This document shows positions 27,635 to 43,785 of a stretch of 64,000 bases of DNA, in pieces. The notes under the pieces were generated by a model, which worked only from the letters and a program-made list of their open reading frames with translations, was not told the DNA's origin and searched no databases. The DNA comes from Piper betle (taxonomy: Eukaryota > Streptophyta > Magnoliopsida > Piperales > Piperaceae), in contig JAURVB010014533.1 of assembly GCA_033002965.1 (NCBI GenBank), positions 1 through 64,000 on the forward strand, in the 5' to 3' direction. The position numbers and the translations under genes were made by a program. Each line of letters starts with the position of its first letter. The stretch's first letter is position 1.

Positions 27635-28832
27635 AGTTTCTTCCACCTGGAATAAAGCGATAAGGCAGGTATTTCTTTGCTTCATTTCTTTTACTGCTCG
27701 ATTGTACAAGCAAACATTAATTATTCTTAATTTTGTAGCTAGAAATAGAATTTTGTGCTCAAGTTTTCATAATGTATAATGTTTCATGTAGGCTACGTAG
27801 CTGTTACTATGAGGTTTTACTTCAATCAATTCTTGTGAATGTTTCAAGTTCATTATCTAACTCTATCAATTATTCTGCATTGCCGATCCTAAGTCAAGAT
27901 AAAGTATGGTTGGCATCATAATGGGCATATAGATTCCTAGTTTAGGGTTCATCCTTCGACGTCCTTTAGGTGCCGGGTGAAAGATGAAGAATTCTTCACA
28001 GCAGAATGTTTTGTTGCATTTGTTTCTCCGTTAAGCTAGCACCTTAGATAATGTCATCTTCAACATATACTCTAGTTGGATTTGAGGATGGTGGCTCTTA
28101 ATGTTCAGTGTCTAAAGAAATCACTTCTTTTTTAGGTACAAATATGTTATGTTTTGGATGCTAAAGGTGATCAAAGAAGTTGACAGTAAGGCAGCCCCTA
28201 TGTGGACCAATCAAAATGCGGCGTACTTTAGGCTCAAAAAATAGGACATGGCTAAAACTCTTTCAATAAGATATCATGAAATAAATTACGTCAGATGGTT
28301 CGTGGTTAATTTATACATTATTCAAAACTAGTGGGATGGGTCTGGTATATTTTGTATCAAGCTGCTTAAATTTTGATACATTTGCATTATTGTTAAGTGG
28401 ATTATGAACTTAATTATGATGTATTGTGAGAAAGGTTGTGATGTTTTCAGTTTCAGTAAGTTGATTTTGCAATGATACGCATAAAACTTTTTTGAATTCT
28501 ATCCCTCAAATGTTGTTGTGAAGCAAAGTCACACTCAAACCTTAGCCGCCATTCCAAAACTACTTCGAACTTAAAGTCCCAAATACAAGGCGATACATAC
28601 ATACATATATACATATATATATATATAGTAAAGTAAAGTAAACTTTGCTGCATCCTAATATGTAGTAGATAAGGGATTCATGGTGGGTTGGTTGCTTTGA
28701 TTCAAGTCCGTCATCCCATTTACACCTACCCAGAGAGGAGATTGTACACATCTCTAAGCAAAATGTCAAGAGTTACGTATGTGGACAGTGGACCTTTTTT
28801 TTTTGCAAGGCGTGGACAAGGGAGTTTGATCT
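27635..28832. other. Intergenic between a receptor-like protein pseudogene and the RLK7-like gene
   Basis: AT-rich sequence. A (TA/CATA)n microsatellite lies at about 28590-28627. No gene is recognised; part will be the 3' untranslated region of the RLK7-like gene. Confidence 0.5.
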
Positions 28833-31800
28833 TCACAACTTGCAACTCTTTCTTCCTTCCTCGTCTCCTTCTTTACCCTCCTTCACGCTAACTATCCTAA
28901 CCAACTTGCAAGGCTCTGCGTCCTCCAGCATCTGCACCACTTTCCTCATCGTCGGTCGCAGAGCGGGCAGCCTCGCCGTGCAGAGGACGGCGATCCTCAA
29001 AACCACCACCACTTCTTCCCTCAATGTCTCTGGGATTCTCTGGTCTATGACTCCCATCACATTCTCTCTACTCGTCATTTTGCTTGAAACCCATCCTACA
29101 ATGTCCTTGCTCTCACCAAACTCAGGCTCCACCGGCCTTTTACCAGTCACCAGTTCCATTAGTACCACCCCAAAGCTGTACACATCGCTCTTCTCGTTCA
29201 CCTTGTTTGTGTATCCATACTCTGCCAACAAAGACAGATCAAGATAAATTTCCTAACAAGAAAGGTGAAGACTGGTTACATAGATAACCAATTTTGTTTT
29301 ATTTATCATTCCCAATTACTCAATCAAATTAATAACCAACTCCTTCAAAAACAAATAACCAACTAGGAAAATGAAGTTCTGATCACAAGTCGCACTCACC
29401 GGGTGCGATGTAGCCGTAAGTTCCTGGTATCACAGACGCCGAGTCCTTGCCCGAGTCGGGCTCGACCATCTTAGCGAGTCCGAAGTCGGCGATCCGGGGC
29501 TTGAAGAAGTCATCTAGGAGGATGTTGCTAGACTTGACATCCCGATGGATGATCGGACGATCCCAGCCATGGTGCAAATACTCCAAACCCTTGGCCGATC
29601 CAAGGGCGATTTCGTACCGAGTGAACCAGTCCAGCTCGGTCTTCCCACACGTGTGAAGCCGATCCCACAGGCTCCCATTGGGCATGTACTCGTACACCAA
29701 CAGGCTCGACTCCTCCCCGGTGATGCTACAATAAAGTTTAACAACATTCACGTGCCGGACGGAGCTAAGCGCCGCCACCTCGGCCGCCAGCTCCGCCACC
29801 TTATCCTGCCGCCCCCGGCGACCCAACATGGCGGAGCTGCTCTTCCCCCTGGGGCCTCCATTTCCATCTCCATCTCCATTTCTAGCTGTTGATGTCAAAA
29901 TGTGCTTCACTGCTAGTTCCTTCCCACCGGCCAATGTGACCCGGTACACATCCCCTGACCCACCCTTGCCGATGAGATTCTCTTGTCGGATCCCGCCTAG
30001 CACATCTTGCTCCGTAAAAGTCAGCACCTGATATGGTTTGAGATCCCATGAATCTTGTCTTGATGGGCCTTCCTTTTCTGAGCCACGCTTTTTGACAAAG
30101 AGGAAGCAGCCGAGGGAGGCCAGGGTCACCGCGGTGACGGCCAGGAGGGAAGTGATTATTGTCCGGAGTCTGCCGGTCTTTCTCGCCTCCGGCGAGCAAG
30201 CCGGCAACTCGCCGCCGGTGGTTGAGCTGCATAGGCCGGCGTTGCCATCGAAGCTGCCCGCATAAGCTCCGATCACGAGTGAGTCCGGGACCTGACCCGA
30301 CAACCGGTTGTTGGTCAGGTCGAGTGTGCTCAATCTCAAGCCCGACAAGCTGGCCGGAATCTCGCCGGAGAGCTGGTTGCCGGAGAGATTCAAGTAGTTG
30401 AGTGACGGGATGGAGCCCAAGCTTGCCGGAATCTCGCCAGAAAATAAGTTACGGGCCAGGTTGAGCTGGTCGAGTGAGAGGCAGGAAGATAGATCCGCCG
30501 GGATCACGCCGGAAAACCGATTGTTCTGCAAATACAGGCTGTTCAGATCGCTTAGCTTTCCGATCTTCGCCGGGAGCTTGCCCGAGAACGTGTTGTCGCT
30601 GAGGTCGATGGAAAGCAGCTTTGCCGCCTTCAAGATGTCATCGGGCAGCTCCCCGGAGAACTTGTTATCGGCGATCAACAGCGTGCCGAGCTTCGCCGCG
30701 CCGCCGATGTCAGCGGTGATCGGCCCTTCCAACCGATTCGATTGGAGATCGATGATCTCAGCGTTCGGCAGACCCCAGATCTTCGCCGGAACGACGCCGG
30801 AGAGGTCGTTGTTGCTCACCCGGAATCGTATGATGGTCTTGCAGTCGCCGTAGGTGGCTGGGATCTGGCCGGTGAGGTTGTTGTTGAGGATTAGCAGCTT
30901 CTTCATCGTCCCATTCTTGCACATGTCCGGCGGGATCCCGCCGGAAAGGAAGTTGTCGGAGGCGTCGATGAAGTTGAACTCCGCCCAGCTCCCGATCGCC
31001 GGCGGCAGCGGCCCGGTGAACATGTTGCTGTAAATCGAGAGATTGACTAGGCGGCGGAAGTCGCCGAACTCGGGCGGGATATCGCCGGAGAGGGAGTTGT
31101 TGAAGAGCTGCAAAGAAACAAGATTCACCATCGGAACGAGCTCCCGAAGCGTCCCGGTGAGGCGGTTGGTGGATGCGTCGAAGTACTCCAAGCCGGTGAG
31201 GTTGCCCAGCCCCGCCGGGAACTCGCCGGAAAGTTGGTTCTCATAAAGCTCCAAAGTTTTCAGCTTGGAGAGCCTCCCGACCTCGGCGGGGATGTTTCCG
31301 GTGAGTGAATTGGTGGATAGCTCGAGCCGGAATAGCTCAGTAAGTCCGCCGATGGCCGGGGGGATCTTGCCGGCGAGGGAGATTTTGGAGAGGTAAATCG
31401 ATTGGAGCTTCTTCAAACCAAGGATTTCGGTCGGGAAATCCGACGGGGCAAAGGGGTTGTCACCGAGAATAAGCTGCTGCAAATCGGACAACCCCTTGAG
31501 CGACGGCCAGGGAAAGTCGCCGGAGAAGACGTTATCGGATAAGTTGAGGACCTGAAGCTTGACTAGAGCGGACAAGTCTGGGACGGCGCCGGAGAAGGAG
31601 TTGAAGGCGAGGTCGAGATGTAGCAGCCCGGTGCATGATCGGAGTTCCGGCCCGACGCCGCCGGAGAGGGAGTTGGAGCCGATGGCGAGCTTCTCAAGGG
31701 CGGGGAGGCGGCAGACGGTCCTAAAGTTGACGATGCCTGAGAGACCGCGTCCAGTGAGGTCTATACTCGTGACTGAGCCGTCCGAGTTGCAGGTGACGCC

Positions 31801-31980
31801 GGAGAAGGAGCAATACGGTGAGCCCGGCCGCCAGGAATCGAATGGGGAGGGGGCAGCGATAAGGTGGGACTTGAACTCGAGGAGGATGTCCCGCTCCGTG
31901 TCGTCCGATGACACAGCGGAGACGGCGACGAGGAGGAGTAGGAGGAGGAGTGGCGGTGGCCAGTGGATGGAGGCCGGCAT
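28833..31980 (-). CDS. RLK7/HAIKU2-like LRR receptor kinase
   Basis: Predicted plasma-membrane peptide receptor kinase, LRR subfamily XI. RLK7 perceives PIP-type peptides in immunity and root growth; HAIKU2 controls seed size. Exon 1 is 31980-29400 and exon 2 is 29221-28833. The GT/AG intron splits the Glu of APE (IAP-E-YGY). The joined frame is 989 residues and fully open. Visible are a signal peptide (1-25), an N-terminal cap (CSFSGVTC), about 20 LRRs, a transmembrane helix (about 606-629), a glycine loop GKGGSGDVY (about 671), KELAVKH, HRDVKSSNILLD, DFGLA, and a C-terminal PCKLVRIVSVKEGKE like RLK7. A Gly/Ser-rich insert of about 25 residues follows the catalytic Lys. GC is high, unlike its AT-rich neighbours. 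RLK7 and HAIKU2 orthology cannot be separated by eye. Confidence 0.93.
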
Positions 31981-32066
31981 GTTGTGGGCGGCAGTGGGTG
32001 GCGGAGTGGGAGTGGGGCGTTGGGGATGGGATGGTGGCGGGGTGGGAAGTCAGAGAAGGCGGTGTT

Positions 32067-32074
32067 GATATAAG
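32067..32074 (-). promoter_or_regulatory. TATA-like element of the RLK7-like gene
   Basis: The minus strand reads CTTATATC about 87 bp before the ATG at 31980. The long TA microsatellite further upstream (32148-32181) belongs to a mobile element and is less likely to be the core promoter. Confidence 0.4.
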
Positions 32075-32144
32075 TCGGCACCGGGGCCCTCCCTAGTGTG
32101 CAATGAAAACAAAGTTTGTGGTCGTTGGGCCCCACCCTTCTTTT

Positions 32145-32147
<3 letters not shown>

Positions 32148-32183
<36 letters not shown>

Positions 32184-32572
32184 GATCCTATCACGTGTTT
32201 TGAATGAGAGCCGTTGGATCAAAATCCAACGGTTCTTGTTCATCTTGTTTTTAGATTTGTGAGATTGCCCGGCTGACCCGCTTGAACTGGACCTCCCGCT
32301 AGCGACCACACCACTGCCTACCGCAGCCGAGCCGTGGAGGGCAGGGCTGCCGGCAGGGGCGAGGCTGCGGCTGTGGCAGGCGATGGCGCGGTCGCGAGCG
32401 GGAGGTCCAATTCGAGCAGGTCAGGCGGGTCAGGCAGGCAATCGGGTCACAAATTTGAAAAAAGCAAGATGAATGAGAGCCGATTGATTTTAATCCAACG
32501 GCTCTCGTTCAGCAGCGTATGGTGTACTGCAAAAACTTGTAGCGCACCATAGTGTATATATATATATATATA
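32148..32572. mobile_element. (TA)n-bounded fold-back element A
   Basis: It is bounded by TA microsatellites (32148-32181 and 32555-32572). Long inverted arms lie at 32202-32300 and about 32397-32505. The left arm holds CCGTTGGAT(N4)ATCCAACGG at 32211-32232, and the right arm an imperfect copy at 32480-32501. Outside the right palindrome is a terminal hairpin (32518-32551, TATGGTG...CACCATA). The short core is GC-rich with no gene. It lies about 170 bp upstream of the RLK7-like ATG. Confidence 0.7.
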
Positions 32573-33282
32573 GGAAATAAGGTTTCTGTGCTTGAGCACA
32601 GGCAGCTTGCCTGTGCTCAAGTTTTATCTTAGCCGTTGGATTAGCATCCAACGGCGAAGATCAAAAAAAAAAAAAAACAGGGGTGCGCCGGCGTGCCGCA
32701 GCAACGACGGCGGAGGGGCGGAAGGGGGCCCGGCCACGGCGACAGCCGGGGGGGGCGGCGGCGACAGGGGACGGGGTTGGTCCGAGGGGCGCGGCGCGGC
32801 GTGGTGGCGGGCGGGGGCCGAGGGGGCGCGGCGGGGTGGCGGGCGAGGGCCGACGGGGTGGCGGGCGGAGGCTGAGGGGGCGCGGCGGGGGACAGGGGAC
32901 GGGGGGGGGGGGGGCGTGGCGCAGCGGGGTGGCCGGCGGGGGACGGGCGGGTGGCCAGCGGGGGACGGGGCGGGGTGGCGGGCGGGGGCGCGACGGGGTG
33001 GCGGGCGGGGGACGGCGACAGGGAGGCGGCGGGCGGCGGACCGGCAAGGGAAGAGCGGGGCGGCTAGATCCGCCGCCCGCGCCGCCGGTGGTGGGGGGAG
33101 GGGGTCGCCGCCCGTCGGCCGGGGGCGGCGCGACGGGCCGGGCAGGGGTCCACGTCGGCCGGGGGCGGCGGCGACGCGTCGGCCGGCGGCGCGCGTTTAT
33201 CCAGCCGTTGGATTGAATCCAACGGCCGGATGGCTCAAGCTATCAGGCAGCTTGCCTGTGCTTGAGCACAGTAAATCCGCCC

Positions 33283-33314
<32 letters not shown>
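32555..33314. mobile_element. (TA)n-bounded fold-back element B
   Basis: It shares the TA tract at 32555-32572 with element A and ends in another at 33286-33314. The left end has a perfect 14-bp hairpin (CTTGAGCACAGGCA, 32591-32604, with its inverse 32608-32621), then a perfect 10-bp palindrome GCCGTTGGAT/ATCCAACGGC (32632-32655). The right end mirrors this: palindrome at 33204-33226, then GGCAGCTTGCC and CTGTGCT(TG)AGCACAG (33256-33271). The interior (about 32690-33190) is G-rich with degenerate GGGGTGGCGGGCGGGGG-type tandem units, and I do not believe its long open frames are genes. Confidence 0.7.
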
Positions 33315-33317
<3 letters not shown>

Positions 33318-33724
33318 GATGGATTTTCGGTTCTATGGAACAAGAACTTATCTATTTATTTCCACCTTGGCCCCCTTATTCTAGTGGCTCACATTCATTC
33401 TTTCCCCCCTACCTGGCAACAACCTCGCCCGCCCGAGCTTCTCGCCCCGTGCTGCTTTCCCGCCCGCTCAACTGTTTTAAAACCCCCTCCCCCGCCATCG
33501 GGCACCGCCTGCCCACCCCCCAGCCCCCGTTTGCAGTCGTGTCCCCCAACCCCAGCCGCGGCCCCCCTTCCCTGCCGCGCCTACTGCCACAAATCTAGCT
33601 GAATACTAGCATCAAGTAAGAGTGAAACCTTTTAAAAGTGCTTTGACTTAACTAAAGAACGTTTATTGTAACTATTTTAGTTGATTATATTCTTAGTTTT
33701 TCAAAATTTTGTATTTTATTAAGA
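33315..33724. other. Region between element B and the FAR1-like pseudogene
   Basis: C-rich to about 33590, then AT-rich. It may be the 5' flank or leader of the FAR1-related sequence. The open frames are Pro/Ser-rich low complexity. Confidence 0.35.
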
Positions 33725-35166
33725 ATGGACAATATTCAAGATAAAGGAAATGACGAAGAAAAATTAGGCCAACATATTATAACATTCTATCCTATTATAG
33801 AAAATGAATTCAAACCGAAGGTTGAAATGCAATTTAATTGTTTGTACGATGCACTCAACTTCTACACTAGTTATTCAAAAATGGCCGGATTTGGTGTACG
33901 AAAATATATAATAAATTATCATAAGAGAACAAAAAAGTTATGTTCTCAAGTATTTGTATGTTCTCGTATTTGTGTGTTCTAAAGAAGGACGTTCAAAAGA
34001 AGATGAGTGTAAAATATAAATTGGATATAAGGATGATAACAATAATAATGGAATGAGTATGAGCAAACAAAAGAAAGAAATACCCCACAAAGGAAAAAAG
34101 AGAATTTATCCTATAATTAAAGAAGATGGTCAAACATGCATTAGGGTAACTAAAAATAAAGAGGGTACATGGAAGGTCATGCATTTTGAAGAAGAACATA
34201 TTCATGCACTCCTTACACCATCAAAAACTCATTTTTTAGGTCACATAGGCATGTTATAAGTGTGCACTGAAATTTGATTGACACATTTGTAGAGGCTAAT
34301 ATAAAAACTTCTCAACTAATATCTATGCTAGAAATTGAGTTTATATATAAATTTGAGAGAGCTATCAAAAGATAAAGATAAAATGAAGCAAAAAAATCTT
34401 ATGAAAACTCGTATAAAAGCCCTATATTGGTCACTTCATTCAAGATGAAATATAAGATGGAAAAGGTTTATACTCGAAATTTTTTTATAAGTTTTAAGAA
34501 GAACTACAATACAGTTTAGTTTGTTGTTTATCTCATAAAAAATCAGATTAGGAGGATGTTAAACAGTATGATGTAACATGTTGTAGAAATAATAATGAGT
34601 TGGTTACGTGCTACTTACATACGAGTTGATAGTAGATGCACATGTAGTTGTAAATTTTTGGAAAGTGAAGGTATTTCATGTAAGCATTTGTTGTATATAC
34701 TGAGATTGAATGAGGGTGATTTTTTCTCAACTCTATGTCATGAAGAGATGAACAATTAAAATAGCAAAGGAAATTGTTTTTAATGGTGATGGAGTGGAAC
34801 GAAGTAGTGATTGCAACAATACTTTATTTTTTAACTGGGGAGAATTGCAGTGTATGTTCTATGGATTGGCCAAAAAGGCATATTCATCATCTGAAAAATT
34901 TGAATTCGCCAATCAAAAACTTTTGGAGATATAGAAATTGATAGAAAATATGGTAGATGATCCACATCATAGAATATAAGTACATCATGGAATACAAATA
35001 CATCATCCACCTGCACAATCAAAAACAAAAGGAAGTGGTAAAAGGTGGAAGTGGTAAAGAACTTGCAATTGAGCATATGGTAAAAGATAGGTTATATCAT
35101 GGTTGCAATAAATGGGAAGTTGGGCACGATAAGCGCACTTGCCCTGCAATTGTAACACATCGGTAA
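33725..35166 (+). pseudogene. FAR1/FHY3-related (FRS) or MULE-derived sequence, truncated
   Basis: FAR1-family proteins are transcription factors derived from Mutator-like transposases. The first frame (33725-33982) has the FAR1 DNA-binding start: KVEMQFNCLYDALNFYTSYSK then GFGVRKY. A 16-nt tandem duplication near 33953 (GTATTTGTATGTTCTC then GTATTTGTGTGTTCT) shifts the frame, after which CSKEGRSKED and GTWKVMHFEEEHIHALLTPSK complete the domain (34053-34259). A SWIM zinc finger (CTCSCKFLESEGISCKH, 34637-34687) and a zinc-knuckle-like tail (HGCNKW...GHDKRTCP, about 35100-35150) follow. The MULE transposase core expected between the domains is absent. Multiple stops indicate a pseudogene. Confidence 0.75.
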
Positions 35167-35667
35167 TATTGCTTAACACAAACCTTGTTTTGATCTTTGT
35201 TATAAATAATTTATGTGATTAGTTTCCATGTTTTGTTTTTAAATATATAGGAAAAAAATGTTCCATCTAAAAGTGGAGTTGTGGAGTCTATTCAGAGGCA
35301 TCGTTGCAATGATGGTGAATCTCAAAGCAATGATGGAGAACGACTATGATAGCTACAAATCTGGAAAGACTATATAATCTTAGTGATTTGTAACTTGTTT
35401 CCATGATTTGTAATTATCTTTAATAAAACTTGACAGATTTGTAACTTTTAAGTTATTCGCAGGCATGATCTTTTATTGTTTGTACTTGTATTCATCATGT
35501 GGAAGAAAATTAAATAAGATGGCTCTCATGTGTTTTGGCTCTAATATGTTTCTGAATTCATCAACATAAATTAAATGTTCTTAATAAGAGGCCAGCCATT
35601 CTTGAATACGGGCATCGATGTGTTTCCGAATTCTGGGAGGAAAAATCTATGCTGTTTTTACACATTA
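35167..35667. other. Intergenic, nothing recognised
   Basis: AT-rich sequence following the FAR1-like remnant. No gene or element boundary is clear. Confidence 0.45.
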
Positions 35668-35937
35668 CATGATGAATGCAGAAATAAAAAAAGAGTTATC
35701 AGAATATATAAGAGTATGCTATTTTTTTTAAATATATAGTTGATCGCAAACTTAATTTTAAAACTGTTTACCGAGTTAGGATGCATTATTTATTAATTTT
35801 GGAGCATGTTATTCAAGTTACAACTCCATTATTTTTATTTTATTGTATTTTACTATATTTTTATTATAGTTATCGAGATGTATTTTGTAATATTGACTCG
35901 AGTTGGGACCAAGTCAAGTTTTTATTACAAAACTACC
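35668..35937 (+). repeat. Dispersed repeat R1, copy 2
   Basis: It is similar to 12166-12470 and ends in GACTCGAGTTGGGACC then GTCAAGTTTTTATTACAAAA. The same ending recurs many times inside element D (42180-43320). GC-rich sequence follows at once. Confidence 0.6.
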
Positions 35938-36151
35938 CCGAGCGCAGAGGTGGCTGAGAGGGCAGCGAAGGGCAATAGCAGTTGGGGGGAGTGGTGATCG
36001 CAAGGGATGGTGGCTAGGGGCAGGGGGTGGGGGCGGTGAGGAGGTCTAATGGTGGCAGCAGGCGGCGACTAGGGGGGTGTGAATATCCAGCGGCTCTCGT
36101 TGGGGTGCACAGCATGCGCTGCAAAAGCATGCAGCACACCCCAAACTAACT

Positions 36152-36153
<2 letters not shown>
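35938..36153. mobile_element. Right end of a (TA)n-bounded element (C)
   Basis: A GC-rich stretch leads to ATCCAGCGGCTCTCG (a damaged half of the family palindrome, about 36085-36099) and a strong terminal hairpin at 36100-36144 (TTGGGGTG...GCATGC with its inverse). It then meets a 63-bp TA microsatellite. The layout is the same as the right end of element A. The left end was not identified. Confidence 0.5.
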
Positions 36154-36220
<67 letters not shown>

Positions 36221-37463
36221 TTTTATAAGCCCAGGGCAGGAATATTTTCCTTCCCCAAGCTCTAATCTAGGTCGTTTGATCATAAAAATGGCCTACATTT
36301 GATGAAAGCAAAAAAAAATCTTCCACCCCCTCCATCGGCAGCCAAGTTCTGGCCACGATCGGCTGCAGCGGCAAATCTGAGTCGAGGGCAGTGGGTGGGT
36401 AGGGTGGGGGTGTCGACATTGGGAGGGACGGCCAATCAGGTCTAGCTATCCCTTAGCCAGATCTGGTTGGGGGATGGCCAGGTCCTGCTAGCGGTGACCA
36501 GATTTGGAACCAGACCGGAAAAATGCCTCATCACCGTTGTCTTTCATCGCCAAGAGTTTGTTGGTCTGACGACAGCATCTCCCTCTTCGAAACCCATGTC
36601 GTAACAAGCACCGAACCTACCAGCACCGCTACTTCCTCCTCCAAGTCGAAGAGCTCAGCCCATTTGCTATCACACATCAAGTGGTTCCTTCGTCGGTGAG
36701 CGGCTGCCCTCGCTGCCATGGATGCCGGCACTGACGCCGAGGCCATCGCCACCCTCGCTGCCCCACCACCAAGCCCAAGACCCCTGTCCAGTGCTGCCAC
36801 AAGATTGAGAAGCTTTGCAAGCGCTACCGAGCTGAGAAGCGCTGCCCGGCCCCTGCCGCCTCCACCCGTTCCCCCTGCCCCACCGCTTGGCTATACTTCC
36901 AGAAGTTCAACGCCATGGAGCCCTCCCCCTCCCCATCCCCATTCCCCCTCATCACCATCGCCCGCCCCCTCCCCCTCTAACTCCGACTCTTCCGATTCCT
37001 CTCTCGGTGCCAACGACGACGGCACGAACAACACCCGCAGCCTCCATCGCCTCATGTCCAATGGCGTTGGCGTTGGCATTGGCAGGGTTGGGTAGTGCGG
37101 CAAGATAGCCACGGGGCGGCTATTTTTTTGTTGCATGGCCGGATCTGGGCGCCACTGGCCAAGTACATTTGCCGCCTGGCCGCACAGCCAAATCCGACCA
37201 CGGTTGGATTTGGTCTAGGGGTGGCCAAACATGGTCACCCTGGCCGGCACAGCGGCCGCCGGCGTCATTATCCGAGGTTTAGTTTTTATTTCTAAAAAAA
37301 TAATAGATATTGATCATCCTTATAATCGAACGGCTTAGATCAAAGTTTAGTTTAGTTTTTTTAAAATAATAGACATGGGCCGTCCAAATAAAACTTGCAG
37401 AGTAGAAATTTTTTTTGCCTCGGGTTCACTTCAACGTGTATATATATATATATATATATATAT
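36154..37463. mobile_element. (TA)n-bounded element E carrying a captured gene fragment
   Basis: It is bounded by TA microsatellites at 36154-36216 and about 37439-37463. Inverted arms are TCTAATCTAGGTCGTTTGAT(CATAA) at 36261-36285 and its degenerate inverse at 37320-37344, again centred on a CCGTT(T/C)GAT-like core. The interior is GC-rich and holds a trihelix transcription-factor fragment (36771-36914). Confidence 0.65.
36771..37095 (+). pseudogene. Captured trihelix (ASIL/SIP1-like) transcription factor fragment
   Basis: The frame at 36771 reads KPKTPVQCCHKIEKLCKRYRAEKR, then a short linker and AWLYFQKFNAME. This is the third helix and following region of plant trihelix factors, whose usual wording is an (R/K)-T-x-x-QC-(R/K)-x-K-(I/V)-(D/E)-x-L-KK-(R/K)-Y-(R/K)-x-E run and then an aromatic pair before K-x-(D/L)-x-ME. 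Upstream of 36771 the frame meets a stop (about 36732). Downstream, in another frame, NTRSLHRLMSNGVGVGIG (36718-37095 frame) also looks trihelix-like. No start and no intact domain remain. Confidence 0.55.
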
Positions 37464-40199
37464 GGCTTAAGGCAAGCTTTGGGGGCGGGGGAATCATATA
37501 TTGTATGGACAAGTTTTCATAAAAACAGTCTTTTTTCTGAAAGAAAAACATTTGTCTTTGAGTTACAATCTAGAAGGATTATATATGTTAGGACTCTAAG
37601 CTTTGATGATTTTTTTTGTTTCGAAGAATAAATAATTGAGGCCAAATACATGAGTTTCACTTTGCCCGAATATGGTAGATTAGATTATGTTACACTGTTA
37701 AGTGCAGGCTTTTATTAACTTCATGGCCCGTGTGTTTCATTAAATTAAAACTTAAAATATAATCATTTTTTCACGTTTGCTCATGGTCCTTTGATATTGT
37801 CCAGAACAGGGTAAATGTTTTTTTTAAATACAAATTTTATGCATGTAAATTTGTGTTGCAGATGACTCCTCGATTTGACCAATAATCTGTACTTCATTAA
37901 ATGTTAGATCCAATTAGTGCTATAAAGAATGGTGTAGAGAATCAGTGGTATATTTTCAAGAAGTTGGGGTTCCTTGAAACCTTGTTTAATATTAGATCAG
38001 GTTCAGGCTGGATTGACAATTATACTCGACATCGGATAAGTAAGTAACTAAGGGTGGAAACGACTTAATTTATTGCCAAGAATTACCATTACCACCTAAA
38101 CGAATACCTTACTGAAATGGCTTTAGAAATAAAAATTAATTTCTTTGACATTCCGAAGGTCACAATTCTTTAAAAATTACATGGGGTTGGAGAGGAGGGG
38201 AAAGATAGCGAAGAGGTGTATAAAAAAGGCAAGTGGGGAAGTTTTTAGGAAAGTTCCATTGAGAGCCGCCTTTGATGACTTTGTAAGTCTTCGTGTTTTG
38301 TCCCGATGTGACCTCCAATTAAATGTGCCTCCTTATCAAAACAGAAAATCACACACGTGTGGGACATATCTTGCATGCCTTTTTTTTTGCAGAGCATAAT
38401 CATAATGCCTTTATACAAAGATAAATCAATACACAACTATTCCAACTGTAAAATGTAAAATACGTGCCCAAATCCCAGGAGCGAACGAGATATTGGCATG
38501 GGATATGACACTTCCGTGGATTTGCGGCCTTTCATCTTTTCCTTTTTCAGGGGAAAAAAGGCGGATTTTCTTTTCCTGTCGAAAGCTTAGAAAAAAGGCT
38601 GATTGCATTTCACAATGAGACTTTCTCGAAGTAGATAGGAATTAGGATAGATAATATAAAAATTATACGAAATAAATATAAAAAATGAAATGTTAAAATT
38701 TTATTTGTATTTGGATATCTAAAAATTTTGTTAAGAGTTTGTTTGGATAATATGAAAATTAGAAATAGTCGACCTTTCAAAAATAGTTATAATTAATATA
38801 TTTAATATAAAAATATTTTTATATTTATTATTTTATATATAAATAAAACATGGTTGTCCACACAGCTCACCACCCAGGAAGTCGCCGACAGCCTTGTATG
38901 TCGTCATGGCCACGGTTCATACACATTTTACGTATAATTTTCTAGTTTTTAAAGTTTTTATTTTTTTGATAAACATGTCAATTATGATCGAAATATTTAT
39001 TGTTGCTATTTATTAATTGTTGTTGAATATTTATTGTTTACTGTTATGACGAATTTTTACTATTGTAGTTTATTTTGTGATTAATTATTATTGTTCTTTT
39101 GGATATATTTTGGAATTAGGGTAGGTGAGATTTTTTCTAAACTTATTAATTTGATTAAGTATTCAAATTCGTCCTTTTCTATAGTTGATTAATTTGGACT
39201 ACAATCAAGCATTATAATATAAGATCAAATACATTACTTAGTATTTTTCAAGACTTGATTAGTTTTGAGTTGTGTTGAGTACTATGATTTCATTAACAAC
39301 TTTTAATTTGTCATAATTTTATTTGACAATCATGTAAAACAATATTTTTTAAGTATTACCTATATTTTATATAAACATATAGACTATCTTATGTGTTATT
39401 GTATTATAGACATATCAATTAATTTATTTTCATTATTTAATGCATGCATTAATGAATACAAATAGGTGTGATTGGTTGCGTAAAAGTTGGTTAGGCGAAG
39501 ATCAACCCAGATTATGCGAAAAGAGTTGAAATGTTTCTTAATTTTACATTCTCGAGTGTAGGTATTTTTAGTAATTTAGAAATTCGTCTGTGCAATGGAT
39601 GTGTCAATCAATGGAGTATAAACCTTTATGATGTCAAATAATATTTTTAAAAGTTTTGTGATTGTAGATATGGTTCGTGGTCGTCGGCTAATTTAGCGTG
39701 GGAGCTCGTCACATGGATCTGGATCCTATGGCAGGGGTCACGTAGATGAACCGATTGCATAACCACAATATTAGAATGCCCATACACCCCTATTGGGTAA
39801 TGATGCGGAGAGTCTCATGCAGATGCCACCAATGAGGCATGTAGTTTTTGGCAGCTTTGAGGACCAAACAAATCGTAGGAGCCGAGCATTGTTGTATCTT
39901 CCGAAGCCTTGTTTTTTAATACAGATTTAGGATGAGCATGTTCTAATTATTTTGTGAATTTTATAGACTTTTTTATTTGAGTATGTCTAGACATATTAGT
40001 GTTATAAATAAGGGCAAATTTCATGGACCATATCCGATGTAGACTAACGTACTTTCTGATCTAATAGATATATAGTACAAAGAGTTGATGATTAATTACA
40101 TCAACATTCAATTTATATTATTTATACATGAAAATTTTAAATAAGTAAATAAGTGAGTTCAAATTTTCATTTCGAAATATGATTTTGTTCTAAAATTTA
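37464..40199. other. Long AT-rich region, one doubtful ORF remnant
   Basis: No intact gene is seen. Around 39668-39905 the plus strand reads MVRGRRLI, a stop, then a Gly/Ser/Arg-rich stretch and MQMPPMRHVVFGSFEDQTNR. It looks like a decayed protein, possibly from a transposon, but I cannot name the family. Confidence 0.35.
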
Positions 40200-40700
40200 C
40201 AAGTTTGTGTAAAACCAAGCATTTCCTACCCAACAAATGTGAAATTATTTTATAAATGTGTAAATTTTCTATCTATAATTCTATTTTTTACTATTTGTCA
40301 AATTTTTAATTATTGCCAACAATTCGAGTAAACAAATAAATATAAGTTGGATGAGCTTTTACGTTGTTTTTGCTTTGCAGGAGAAAGACATATGTAAAGA
40401 TCAAATATTTCCTACTTGATAAATATTAAATTATTTTATGAAAGTGTAAATTTTGCTTGTGTAATTCTTTTTTAAAATATTTTTCAAATGTTTAATTATT
40501 GCAAACAGTCTGAGTAAATGAATAAACATAGGTTAGAGGATCTTCTATGTTATTTTTACTTTGTAGGAAAATTACCTATGTGAAAACCAAGCATTTCCTA
40601 CTTAATGAATGTGAAATTATTTGTCGAATGTGTAAATTTTGGATGAAATATGAATTATAAAATTATGAAATATGAAATGCAAAATTTGTACAGGAGTAAA
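40200..40700 (+). repeat. 186-bp tandem repeat, about 2.6 copies
   Basis: The block around CAAGCATTTCCTACC recurs at 40216, 40402 (as CAAATATTTCCTACT) and 40588, exactly 186 bp apart each time. Shared following blocks include GTGTAAATTTT and TTTAATTATTGC. The copies have diverged, so it is an old local amplification. Confidence 0.75.
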
Positions 40701-41573
40701 TTTTATTCTAATGTTTTATTTACTAGGGAAACTCTGCCAGATTTTCCTTAAAATTATATATTTTATAATAATTTCAAATACATCAAACTTCTTTTTACAT
40801 AATGTCATATGATGTTCTACTTATTTTGTGCATGTTTTTTTAAAAAAATTGTTGACCTGATCTGTGCTAATTAATAACGTTTTTTCAGGCTAGGTATTGA
40901 GAGCATATAGATTCGACATATGGTACTAATCTTTCTAAGTAGCCATTTACAATCGATCTTATGGCATACTGATATCCGGTCGAAGAGCCAAACTAGGGTC
41001 TGTCAGACAAACAAGGGTCAGTATTATAGATTGGGATATGCATTGACGACAGTACACGACCTTCCTGCCAAGTCACATGGATCTACTTCTTACAGTGTCG
41101 ATGGTGTTGGGTCTAGTGTTGGTATGATGAGCGAGACTCCTTAGCCTAATGAGTTTTTTCTCAGTCGATTCGAAGATTTAAAGACCAGTGACTAAGATAT
41201 ACATGCAGACGAGGATAAGGGAGGAGATGACAGCATAGGTTGACACTCGAGACCGCTAGCTTACCCAGCTTGTTGACAAGAGAGACTAGTAATCGAAGGA
41301 GGATGTCAAGCAAAATTGTGCGACTTGTCCAACCATTACTACTACTTTGAATACTCGGATACATCGTCATATGATGATTATATGTAGATAACAATGTCGT
41401 GACCCTTTTGATTATGACCATGATATGTCCTCTCGTGATCCTCATTCCTCTTGCTTGATATAGATATATCTAGGTTTTTTTGTATTAAACAATTGATTTA
41501 TATTTTATGTATGAGATTGAATATTTTATTATATTTTAGATTAAACTTATATTCGATGTTTTTATATTTTTTT

Positions 41574-41575
<2 letters not shown>
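40701..41575. other. Intergenic with broken protein-like sequence
   Basis: The sequence around 40900-41440 is less AT-rich and has protein-like runs with stops in every frame. No domain is recognised. It might belong to the same decayed element as the remnant near 39.7 kb. Confidence 0.3.
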
Positions 41576-41639
<64 letters not shown>

Positions 41640-43785
41640 GCTACTATGCGCTGCCAAGAAAGGCAGCGCATAGGCAGCCTATAAAATCCAGGCCATTGGA
41701 TCCAGATCCAATGGCCTGGAGAACTCATCCAACCCATCCCTCCACCCCACCCCCCCCCGCTACCCTATGCGCACTATCTGCAGGCCGTTGGATCCAGATC
41801 CAACGGACTGGAGCACTCATCACTCATCACCCACCCCACACACCCCCACCCCCCTCCCTCCGCCACCCCCTACCACCGGCAATCGCCGCCTCCTGCTCCC
41901 CCACTCGCCGTCCCCTGGCCGCCAGTCCCCGGCCTGCCGCCACCCCCCAACATGCCGCCCCTCGCCATGCCCTACCGCTCCCCTGCTCCTCCCCCTGCCC
42001 TGCCGCCCCTGCCCCTCCCCCTGCCGCCGCCCCCGGCCTCCAACCCCTGGCCTGCCACCCCTTGCCCTGCCACCCCCAACCGCCGCCCCCTGCTGCCCCC
42101 TCGCCCCTCCCCCTGCCCTGTCGCCACCCCCCTCACCGCAGCCCCCCGGCCTACCGCCACGCCCCTCTGGTGCTGAAACAGGGGAGTGGGGTAGTATCGT
42201 AATAAAAATTTTATTCGGTCACGAATCATATTTTTATTACGAAATAAATTTTTAAAAAAATAAAATAATTCTGTAATAAAAACTTAACTCATTCATAAAT
42301 TAAGTCAATATTAAAAAATAAATTAAAAAATAAAATAATTTTGTAATAAAAAATTGACTCGATCCCTATCTAGATTCGATCCCTCGGGCCGCCACCTTCC
42401 ACCCTAGCCCTTGCCCGCTCAAAAGAATAAAATAATTTTATAATAAACATTTGACTCGATTCTGTGCGACTCGAGTCAATATTATAAATTAAATTTTAAA
42501 AAAATAAACTAATTTTGTAATAAAAACTTGATTGGATCCCACACTAATTTTTACCAATAATCGAGTCAAGTTTTTATTACAAAATTAATTTATTTTTTAA
42601 AATTTATTTCCTAATATTGACTCGAGTGCTGATCGAGTCAAATTTTTATTACTAAATTATTTTATTTTAAAAAAATTATTTTATAATAAAAACTTGAGTG
42701 AAGTTTATTTTGTAATAAAATTTTGATTCGATCCCGACTTGAGTGAAGTTTTTATTATGAAACTACCCTCCCCTGTTTTTCACCCCCTCTGTTTTGCCAC
42801 GTCACCCCATTGCCGGCGACCTCTTGCTGGCCAACACTGTCGCCGCTTCGCCTGCGGGGGCTGGGGGTTGGGGACCGAGTCAAGTTTTGTAATAAAAACT
42901 TGACTCGATCCCGATTCGAGTCAAATTTTTATTGCAAAATAAATATTAAAAAATAAAATAATTTTTTAATAAAAATTTAACTCGATCCATACTCCAGGTA
43001 ATATTACGAAATAAATTTTAAAAAATAAACTAATTTTATAATACAAACTTGACTCGATTATTGATAGAAATCCGTGTGTGATAAAGTCAAGTTTTTTATT
43101 ACAAAATTAGTTTATTTTTTAAATTTATTTTATAATATTAACTCGAGTCAATATTACGAAAATATTTTATTTTCTTAAAAATTTTATTTTAAAATATTGA
43201 CTCGAGTTGGGACCGAGTCAAATTTTTATTATAAAATTATTTTATTTTTAAATATTTATTTTATAATAAAAATTTGACTCGAGTCGAGATTGAGTCAAAT
43301 TTTATTACAAAACTACCCTCCCCTATTTCTCCCCCTCCCTCTATTTTGCCACGCCGCGTCACCGTCGGCGACCCTCGCCTTCGGCCGCCCGCGTGGGAAG
43401 GGGTGCAATTGTGGGCAGGGGGTGGGAACTGCGGCTTTGGGCAGGGGCAGGGGTGGCCACGCTCGCCCGGGTTGGGGGGGGGTGGCGGCGGCGGGGACGA
43501 GGGGCGAGGGGCGAATGCACCACCAGCCCTCTACACTCTCCCCACAGTACTTCGCGTCGTCGTCATCATCAGACGACTTCCTTGGCCAGCTCTACCCGCG
43601 GTGCCGGGTGGCGCACGTCGGTGGCGGCATGGGGAACCAGCCGAGTTGCCAGGCGAAGGAGGGCTCGACCGTCCTCAATGGGGGGATTGGCAGGATGCTG
43701 CGGGCCGTTGGATCACGATCCAATGGCCAGCAGCCCATGCGCTGCCTTTCTTGGCAGCGCATATGAGCATGGCTCTATATATATA
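41576..43785. mobile_element. (TA)n-bounded fold-back element D
   Basis: TA microsatellites flank it (41576-41636 and 43776-43785). The left end has a perfect 11-bp hairpin (TATGCGCTGCC...GGCAGCGCATA, 41645-41672), then a perfect 14-bp palindrome around CCATTGGAT (41688-41719) and a second palindrome with CCGTTGGAT at 41781-41810. The right end mirrors it: palindrome 43703-43728, then the hairpin ATGCGCTGCC...GGCAGCGCAT (43737-43762). The interior has C-rich (41830-42170) and G-rich (43380-43690) arms around an AT-rich inverted-repeat array. The open frames in the C/G-rich arms are low complexity. Confidence 0.75.
42178..43318. repeat. Array of alternating inverted 60-70 bp units inside element D
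   Basis: GAGTCAA(G)TTTTTATTAC(A)AAA and its inverse TTTGTAATAAAAACTTGACTC recur many times in both orientations (for example 42440-42480, 42560-42600, 42720-42760, 42880-42930, 43030-43110, 43200-43310), mixed with ACTCGAGT palindromes. Three copies lead into the same ACTACCC(T)CCCC(T) junction with GC-rich DNA (42768, 43313, and inverted at about 42180-42200). Confidence 0.7.

What the first reader, a model, noticed from the sequence alone, without database searches (positions are those of the whole stretch)
32148..43785. A family of (TA)n-bounded elements sharing a two-part palindromic end
Elements A, B, D and (in decayed form) C and E share one architecture at each well-preserved end: TA microsatellite, then a terminal hairpin of 10-15 bp, then a palindrome built on CCGTTGGAT/ATCCAACGG (CCATTGGAT variant in D), then GC-rich or foreign interior. 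The hairpin sequences differ completely between elements (CTTGAGCACAGGCA, TATGCGCTGCC, TATGGTG, TTGGGGTG), but within B and D the hairpin is the same at both ends. The palindrome core is shared by all. This suggests a mobile unit recognised by structure plus the CCGTTGGAT core and targeted to TA microsatellites. TA-targeting Micron elements of rice are a known precedent for the target, but I do not recall this end structure for them.
Basis: partly seen in the sequence, partly recalled or inferred. Interest (0 to 1): 0.75.

Follow-up and report, generated by a model that had tools for sequence, protein, structure and literature searches.

The report
TA-repeat-targeting plant transposons with palindromic ends
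A cluster of decayed plant jumping genes, most likely of a known sort (Mutator-like elements that settle in TA repeats), sits in front of a receptor-kinase gene, and their ends carry a palindrome that stays self-complementary although its letters have changed.

Summary
Seven CCGTTGGAT/ATCCAACGG palindromes (at most 3 mismatches) lie in the 64 kb window, all within 155 nt of a (TA)n tract. Elements A, B and D have significant terminal inverted repeats (TIRs; 0 of 300 shuffles). C and E do not (128 and 11 of 300), nor do four other TA-bounded stretches. Corrections: the palindromes lie inside ordinary imperfect TIRs, and the outer hairpins of A and C are alignable.

C carries frameshifted FAR1 and SWIM remnants, as in a Jittery/FAR1-type Mutator-like transposase; no DDE domain was seen. 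A-B-C-E form a TA-separated array in which I saw no unit inside another.

This fits a known kind: TA-microsatellite-targeting Mutator-like elements (MuTAnT, SaTar, Micron, TAFT); MuTAnT already has foldback TIRs. What I did not find in the texts read is a core palindrome shared by elements whose outer hairpins mostly do not align, with flanks that stay complementary while changing sequence (41 of 56 flanking pairs; covariation 0.451 against 0.163, 0 of 500). Empty sites and genome-wide copies could not be checked: the genome search did not complete in ten tries.

The parts
32148..32181 (.). TA tract left of element A
32182..32554 (.). Element A, 373 bp, foldback-type: TIRs about 32201-32328 and 32369-32511 (109 of 143 columns identical; the alignment was limited to half the element on each side), core palindromes 32211-32232 and 32480-32501, outer hairpin only at the right end
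32555..32572 (.). TA tract between A and B
32573..33285 (.). Element B, 713 bp, TIRs 32583-32655 and 33204-33274 (58 of 77 columns identical), outer hairpin plus core palindrome at both ends, interior 32670-33190 with 85% G+C
33286..33314 (.). TA tract between B and C
33315..36153 (+). TA-bounded unit C, 2839 bp: no significant TIR (128 of 300 shuffles); right end has outer hairpin 36100-36144 alignable with that of A and one arm of the palindrome
33725..33979 (+). Reading-frame piece with a remnant of the FAR1 DNA-binding domain, first part (profile 1-37), E 1.1e-5, 26.5 bits against a cut-off of 28.1
34020..34256 (+). Reading-frame piece with a remnant of the FAR1 DNA-binding domain, second part (profile 38-89), other frame, E 3.1e-6, 28.3 bits against 28.1
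34628..34693 (+). Remnant of SWIM zinc finger, E 1.2e-4, 22 bits against 19.6
36154..36216 (.). TA tract between C and E
36217..37438 (.). TA-bounded unit E, 1222 bp: no end hairpin, TIR weak (11 of 300 shuffles); carries a Myb_DNA-bind_4 fragment about 36774-36914, below Pfam's cut-off
37439..37463 (.). TA tract right of E
41576..41636 (.). TA tract left of element D
41637..43775 (.). Element D, 2139 bp, TIRs 41638-41744 and 43679-43770 (79 of 107 columns identical), outer hairpin plus palindrome at both ends
41781..41855 (+). Second, internal copy of the inner part of D's left end (original 41689-41766) with palindrome 41785-41806: a partial tandem TIR; the alignment does not include the outer hairpin and runs into C-rich sequence
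   Evidence: (D_L against D_L2, score 83, 0 of 200 shuffles, shuffle maximum 39)
43776..43785 (.). Short (10 nt) TA tract right of D

Best explanation
A, B and D are non-autonomous Mutator-like elements (MULEs) of the kind that inserts into (TA)n microsatellites, and C is most likely the ruin of a FAR1/Jittery-type MULE whose type of transposase could have moved such elements. Shown: TIRs in A, B and D, TA tracts on both sides, a TA-separated array, FAR1 and SWIM remnants in C, a weak gene-fragment match in E. Inferred: a FAR1-type transposase bound the subterminal CCGTTGGAT palindrome as an inverted, dimer-like site, cut at the TIR ends and integrated into TA repeats; the TA target kept receiving new elements at its edges, which gives tandem arrays; the outer hairpin is the fast-evolving, family-specific end of the TIR. 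Mobility itself is inferred, since no empty site was seen.
For: TIR scores 119, 45 and 80 for A, B and D with 0 of 300 shuffles reaching them, while four TA-bounded stretches elsewhere in the window give 146, 160, 146 and 230 of 300 (only stretches up to 6 kb were tested). All 7 of 7 palindromes sit near TA tracts. FAR1 and SWIM remnants lie in that order in C. A_R and C_R ends align, linking a short element to the unit with transposase-like remnants. D has a partial tandem TIR; tandem TIRs are known for MULEs (PMC3310237: abstract and passages). GC-rich interiors (A 75%, B 85%, D 75% and 69% in two parts) and a Myb_DNA-bind_4 fragment in E resemble gene-fragment capture by Pack-MULEs. Published elements share the target, foldback TIRs and array form (PMC4486113 parts 1-2 of 4; PMC5907723 abstract, passages, sections 13 and 16 part 1).
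Against: No DDE (MULE) domain was matched in the 12 distinct reading-frame pieces of C given to Pfam (5 and 8 pieces, one of them given twice; not every frame of C was tried), and a search with pieces read through found no relative at E 0.001 among 7994 candidates scored. C has no significant TIR, so the remnant may be a captured fragment or come from a FAR1 gene. Target-site duplications cannot be read inside TA tracts. E is weak. No other copies or empty sites were seen, since the host genome could not be searched.
Confidence: 0.72

Rival explanations
1. Several unrelated TA-targeting MULE families happen to carry a motif that is common in plant repeats; the palindrome is a general plant repeat motif and not a family mark. 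(Compatible with the main explanation as to MULEs; rivals it as to one family.)
For: Outside the core the outer ends of A, B and D do not align beyond shuffles. The 9-base core turns up, singly, in maize predicted small RNAs (PMC4802599), a pear small RNA (PMC4791883), poplar tandem repeats (PMC8584087) and a primer beside a rice mPing site (PMC3480845).
Against: All 7 palindromes here are at subterminal positions of TA-bounded elements (one of them in the inner copy in D) and none with at most 3 mismatches lies elsewhere in 64 kb. A and C share more than the core.
Confidence: 0.3
2. The palindromes stay complementary because quasi-palindromes are corrected by template switching during replication, or because one arm is copied onto the other, with no selection on the structure and no role in transposition.
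For: Flanks are palindromic but differ between elements, as self-correction would give. One full compensation separates the two tandem ends of D (A-T against G-C). The correction mechanism itself is recalled, from no call.
Against: The core itself is conserved in sequence, which self-correction alone does not explain.
Confidence: 0.3
3. The elements are a new superfamily, moved by an enzyme that recognises the two hairpins as structures, without relation to MULEs.
For: Outer hairpin differs in sequence but is kept as a hairpin at both ends of B and D, at A_R and at C_R; flank covariation.
Against: FAR1/SWIM remnants, long TIRs, partial tandem TIR and the array form are those of MULEs.
Confidence: 0.05
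4. Chance clustering of palindromes, TA repeats and GC-rich DNA.
For: TA tracts and short stems occur all over the window: 40 perfect stems of 8 bp or more in the filtered list.
Against: Shuffle and shift controls.
Confidence: 0.01

Closest known systems
MuTAnT / AutoMuTAnT of Medicago truncatula (PMC4486113)
   Same: MULE; insertion in (TA)n; short copies (90% are 200-300 bp) with TIRs built of modules that fold back; autonomous relative with a Jittery-like transposase
   Different: Ends there begin with a GGGG stretch; no shared CCGTTGGAT palindrome or two-part end is described in parts 1-2 of 4, which I read
SaTar elements of guayule, rice, sorghum and citrus, including Micron as rSaTar2 (PMC5907723)
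   Same: Non-autonomous MULEs of about 380-1900 bp flanked by (TA)n or other microsatellites, in non-nested arrays of unrelated families
   Different: Words beginning with hairpin or palindrom do not occur in the main text; the elements here share an end palindrome
TAFT elements of maize
   Same: TA-flanked and MULE-like, as cited in the two papers above
   Different: Original paper not held, so ends were not compared
MULEs with multiple TIRs (PMC3310237)
   Same: Tandem TIR, here partial and at the left end of D only
   Different: The terms microsatellite and TA repeat do not occur in the text
FARE foldback elements of Arabidopsis (named in PMC4486113)
   Same: Long palindromic repeats at both ends, now classed as MULEs
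   Different: No TA targeting stated in what I read

Membership tests
TA-microsatellite-targeting MULE (MuTAnT/SaTar kind) | Flanked by (TA)n on both sides | tested here: met
   A, B, C and E by tracts of 18-63 nt; D by 61 nt on the left but only 10 nt on the right
TA-microsatellite-targeting MULE (MuTAnT/SaTar kind) | Imperfect terminal inverted repeats, tens to hundreds of bp | tested here: met
   A, B and D met; C and E not
TA-microsatellite-targeting MULE (MuTAnT/SaTar kind) | Non-nested arrays of different elements | tested here: met
   A-B-C-E in order, each pair separated by one TA tract, with the reservation that C and E have no proven TIRs; D stands 4.1 kb apart
TA-microsatellite-targeting MULE (MuTAnT/SaTar kind) | 8-11 bp target-site duplication at non-TA insertions | not testable with these tools
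   All copies lie in TA tracts; no other copies were reachable
TA-microsatellite-targeting MULE (MuTAnT/SaTar kind) | Related autonomous element with MULE transposase (DDE) | tested here: inconclusive
   FAR1 and SWIM remnants in C, no DDE domain matched in the pieces tried
TA-microsatellite-targeting MULE (MuTAnT/SaTar kind) | Insertion polymorphism / empty (TA)n sites | not testable with these tools
   No related accession on hand; the genome search unanswered in 10 of 10 tries
Micron (rice) | TIR sequence similar to Micron | not tested
   No Micron sequence on hand
Pack-MULE | Carries a fragment of a host gene | tested here: inconclusive
   Myb_DNA-bind_4 fragment in E at E 3.5e-5, 24.6 bits against a cut-off of 27, and E has no significant TIR

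The most novel reading that the evidence does not exclude
TA-targeting FAR1-type MULEs recognise their ends through a conserved core palindrome whose outer pairs, together with a family-specific terminal hairpin, are kept by selection on the shape (cruciform or hairpin), so that families with unrelated end sequences can share one transposase.
Probability: 0.13. Interest if true: 0.65.

Novelty: new variant of a known kind. Interest (0 to 1): 0.37.

Why it matters
How MULEs of this kind find TA repeats, and how different families end up in the same arrays, is open (PMC5907723, section 16, discusses competing models). A shared subterminal palindrome with changing but complementary flanks is a concrete candidate for a common recognition site and can be tested by binding assays and by a genome survey.

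Tried and rejected
Genome-wide survey of the palindrome in the host genome: ten identical requests, none answered. Public collections: 0 viral contigs and 83 stretches in bacterial/archaeal contigs, used only as background; part of the latter are repeats of a few genomera of MAGs, so they overstate the chance rate. No plant genome collection is held. Literature search for the core motif: one search gave 82 papers (30 listed), one search gave 15 (15 listed), from their titles mostly unrelated; of all these I searched four for the motif and did not open the rest. Search with the transposase remnant found nothing at E 0.001, perhaps because the reading is broken and lacks a DDE domain. Pfam on further pieces of C gave only weak, unrelated matches below cut-off, and on reading frames in A, B, C (left end) and D nothing convincing. 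TIR test on E: weak (11 of 300), not counted as evidence. Organism: among the best 120 of 4272 matches listed for the neighbouring receptor kinase, the highest identities are 60-61% (Aristolochia, Tasmannia and others), while the top-scoring one, a longer Centaurea protein, has 50%; this says a flowering plant, and no more is claimed. Papers: PMC4486113 read in parts 1-2 of 4; PMC5907723 abstract, passages and sections 13 and 16 (part 1 of 2); PMC3310237 abstract and passages; PMC9569675, PMC9168764, PMC8599713, PMC4334395, PMC4802599, PMC4791883, PMC3480845 and PMC8584087 only searched for terms, the first four also seen as listings with the start of the abstract.

The shuffles and the control do not remove relatedness among the three palindromes of D or the two of A. 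One of the five measures is weaker than the rest: 8 pairs with a change on both sides against a shuffled 5.2, reached in 4 of 500. The 7 palindromes were chosen on the 9-base core alone (up to 3 mismatches), so the 8 flanking positions are independent of the choice. The random 100-mers were not matched for G+C. In one search, 21 pairs of outer ends were compared, so 1 of 2000 for A_R and C_R is less strong than it looks.
Full report
Observation. The window holds seven palindromes on CCGTTGGAT/ATCCAACGG with at most 3 mismatches in 18 bases; all seven lie within 155 nt of a TA tract of 10 nt or more (mean 0.47 of 7 under shifts, all 7 in 6 of 5000 shifts). Four are exact. The exact pattern occurs in 83 stretches of the bacterial/archaeal collection of 257 billion bases, part of them repeats of a few genomes, and in none of the viral contigs, so four in 64 kb is far from chance. 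Both ends of B and of D fold into an outer hairpin followed by the palindrome with energies far below shuffles; A_R has both more weakly, A_L the palindrome only, C_R the hairpin and by reading one arm, and C_L, E_L, E_R neither. Six of the ten unit ends have a stem score of 10 or more in their first 100 nt. Of 12 other 100-mers beside TA tracts, one reaches 10 (left of the tract at 1681) and the rest 8 or less; of 400 random 100-mers, 3 reach 10.

Terminal inverted repeats. The ends are not only hairpins. A has TIRs of about 128 and 143 bp (109 of 143 columns identical), B 58 of 77, D 79 of 107, each with 0 of 300 shuffles as good. C gives 128 of 300 and E 11 of 300. The TA-bounded stretches 741-1680, 1700-2538, 28628-32147 and 37464-41575 give 146, 160, 146 and 230 of 300 (longer stretches were left out). 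In B and D the outer hairpin and the palindrome both lie within the TIR; in A the TIR begins at the palindrome. The outer segments of different elements mostly do not align (21 pairs tested): of the between-element pairs only A_R with C_R stands out (score 24, 1 of 2000). Over the whole end these two align from the hairpin into the palindrome (score 32, 0 of 200). The inner part of D's left end, palindrome included, is present twice in tandem (score 83, 0 of 200).

Palindrome flanks. The seven palindromes were picked on the core alone. In the 8 positions outside the core, 41 of 56 pairs are Watson-Crick, against a control mean of 15.3 and maximum 27 in 2000 draws. On the alignment 90.8% of 119 cells pair (76.2% in shuffles, 0 of 500 as high); 20 cells have a change on both sides (7.8, 0 of 500), in 8 of 17 pairs (5.2, 4 of 500); the covariation score is 0.451 against 0.163 (0 of 500); sliding the partner by 1-3 columns drops pairing to 23-44%. 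So the palindromes remained palindromes while their flanks changed. The sequences are related within A and within D, which these controls do not remove. Whether selection on shape or self-correction of palindromes did this is not decided.

Content. C holds two parts of a FAR1 DNA-binding domain in different frames, contiguous in the profile (1-37 and 38-89), followed by a SWIM zinc finger (one of the three matches is slightly under Pfam's cut-off, one just over). No DDE domain was matched in the pieces tried, and a read-through search found no relative. FAR1 genes are described as derived from MULEs (PMC8599713, listing and passages), and the autonomous MuTAnT has a Jittery-like transposase (PMC4486113). 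E holds a Myb_DNA-bind_4 fragment at E 3.5e-5, below the cut-off; that this domain is typical of trihelix factors is recalled. Parts of the interiors of A, B and D are GC-rich (69-85%).

Context. Units A-B-C-E follow one another, each pair separated by one TA tract, and I saw none inside another; D lies 4.1 kb further on. The array begins 168 bp upstream of the likely start codon (31980, minus strand) of a gene related to receptor-like kinase 7/HAIKU2 (start placed by reading).

Comparison. MuTAnT (PMC4486113) has foldback TIRs, TA targeting and mostly 200-300 bp copies; SaTars (PMC5907723) have microsatellite flanks and non-nested arrays and include Micron; tandem TIRs are known (PMC3310237). 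These cover nearly everything seen. Not found in the texts read: a core palindrome shared between elements whose outer ends do not align. Words beginning with hairpin or palindrom do not occur in PMC5907723. I searched for the core in print (30 of 82 and 15 of 15 papers listed) and looked into four: maize predicted miR-7 and miR-81 hold the core and are exact reverse complements of each other, pear miRn18 holds it, poplar tandem repeats hold it, and a primer beside a rice mPing site holds it. The single 9-base core is thus not special to these elements; a transposon described by its palindrome did not turn up in those four, and the other listed papers were not opened.

Mechanism. Most likely a FAR1-type transposase bound the subterminal palindrome and moved A, B and D into TA repeats by cut and paste; the repeats then served as landing sites for more. 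Shown: TIRs, TA flanks, array, remnants. Inferred: which enzyme, what the palindrome does, and mobility itself. Decision: a real, decayed cluster, most likely of a known kind, with one feature worth a genome-wide look.

Noticed in passing
42200-43315 and 35848-35935: AT-rich (26% G+C) stretch inside D made of repeated direct and inverted copies around TTGACTCGA, with a related copy near the right end of C (73-74% identical over 88 nt); perhaps another repeat family held by both.
   Followed up: partly
36774-36914: Fragment of a Myb_DNA-bind_4 domain inside TA-bounded unit E, below Pfam's cut-off.
   Followed up: partly
29383-31980: Receptor-like kinase 7/HAIKU2-like reading frame on the minus strand; the element array starts 168 bp upstream of its likely ATG.
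   Followed up: partly
1460-1494: A 10-bp motif CGACCATGAA in direct and inverted copies, making two overlapping palindromes, about 190 nt from the TA tract at 1681.
   Followed up: no
40211-40582: Two tandem copies of a 186-nt unit, 76% identical, in AT-rich DNA between E and D.
   Followed up: no
32211-43726 (core palindrome), compared with papers PMC4802599 and PMC4791883: Predicted maize miRNAs 7 and 81 are exact reverse complements of each other and contain the same 9-base core, and a pear miRNA candidate has it too; repeats with this core may be sources of small RNAs.
   Followed up: partly
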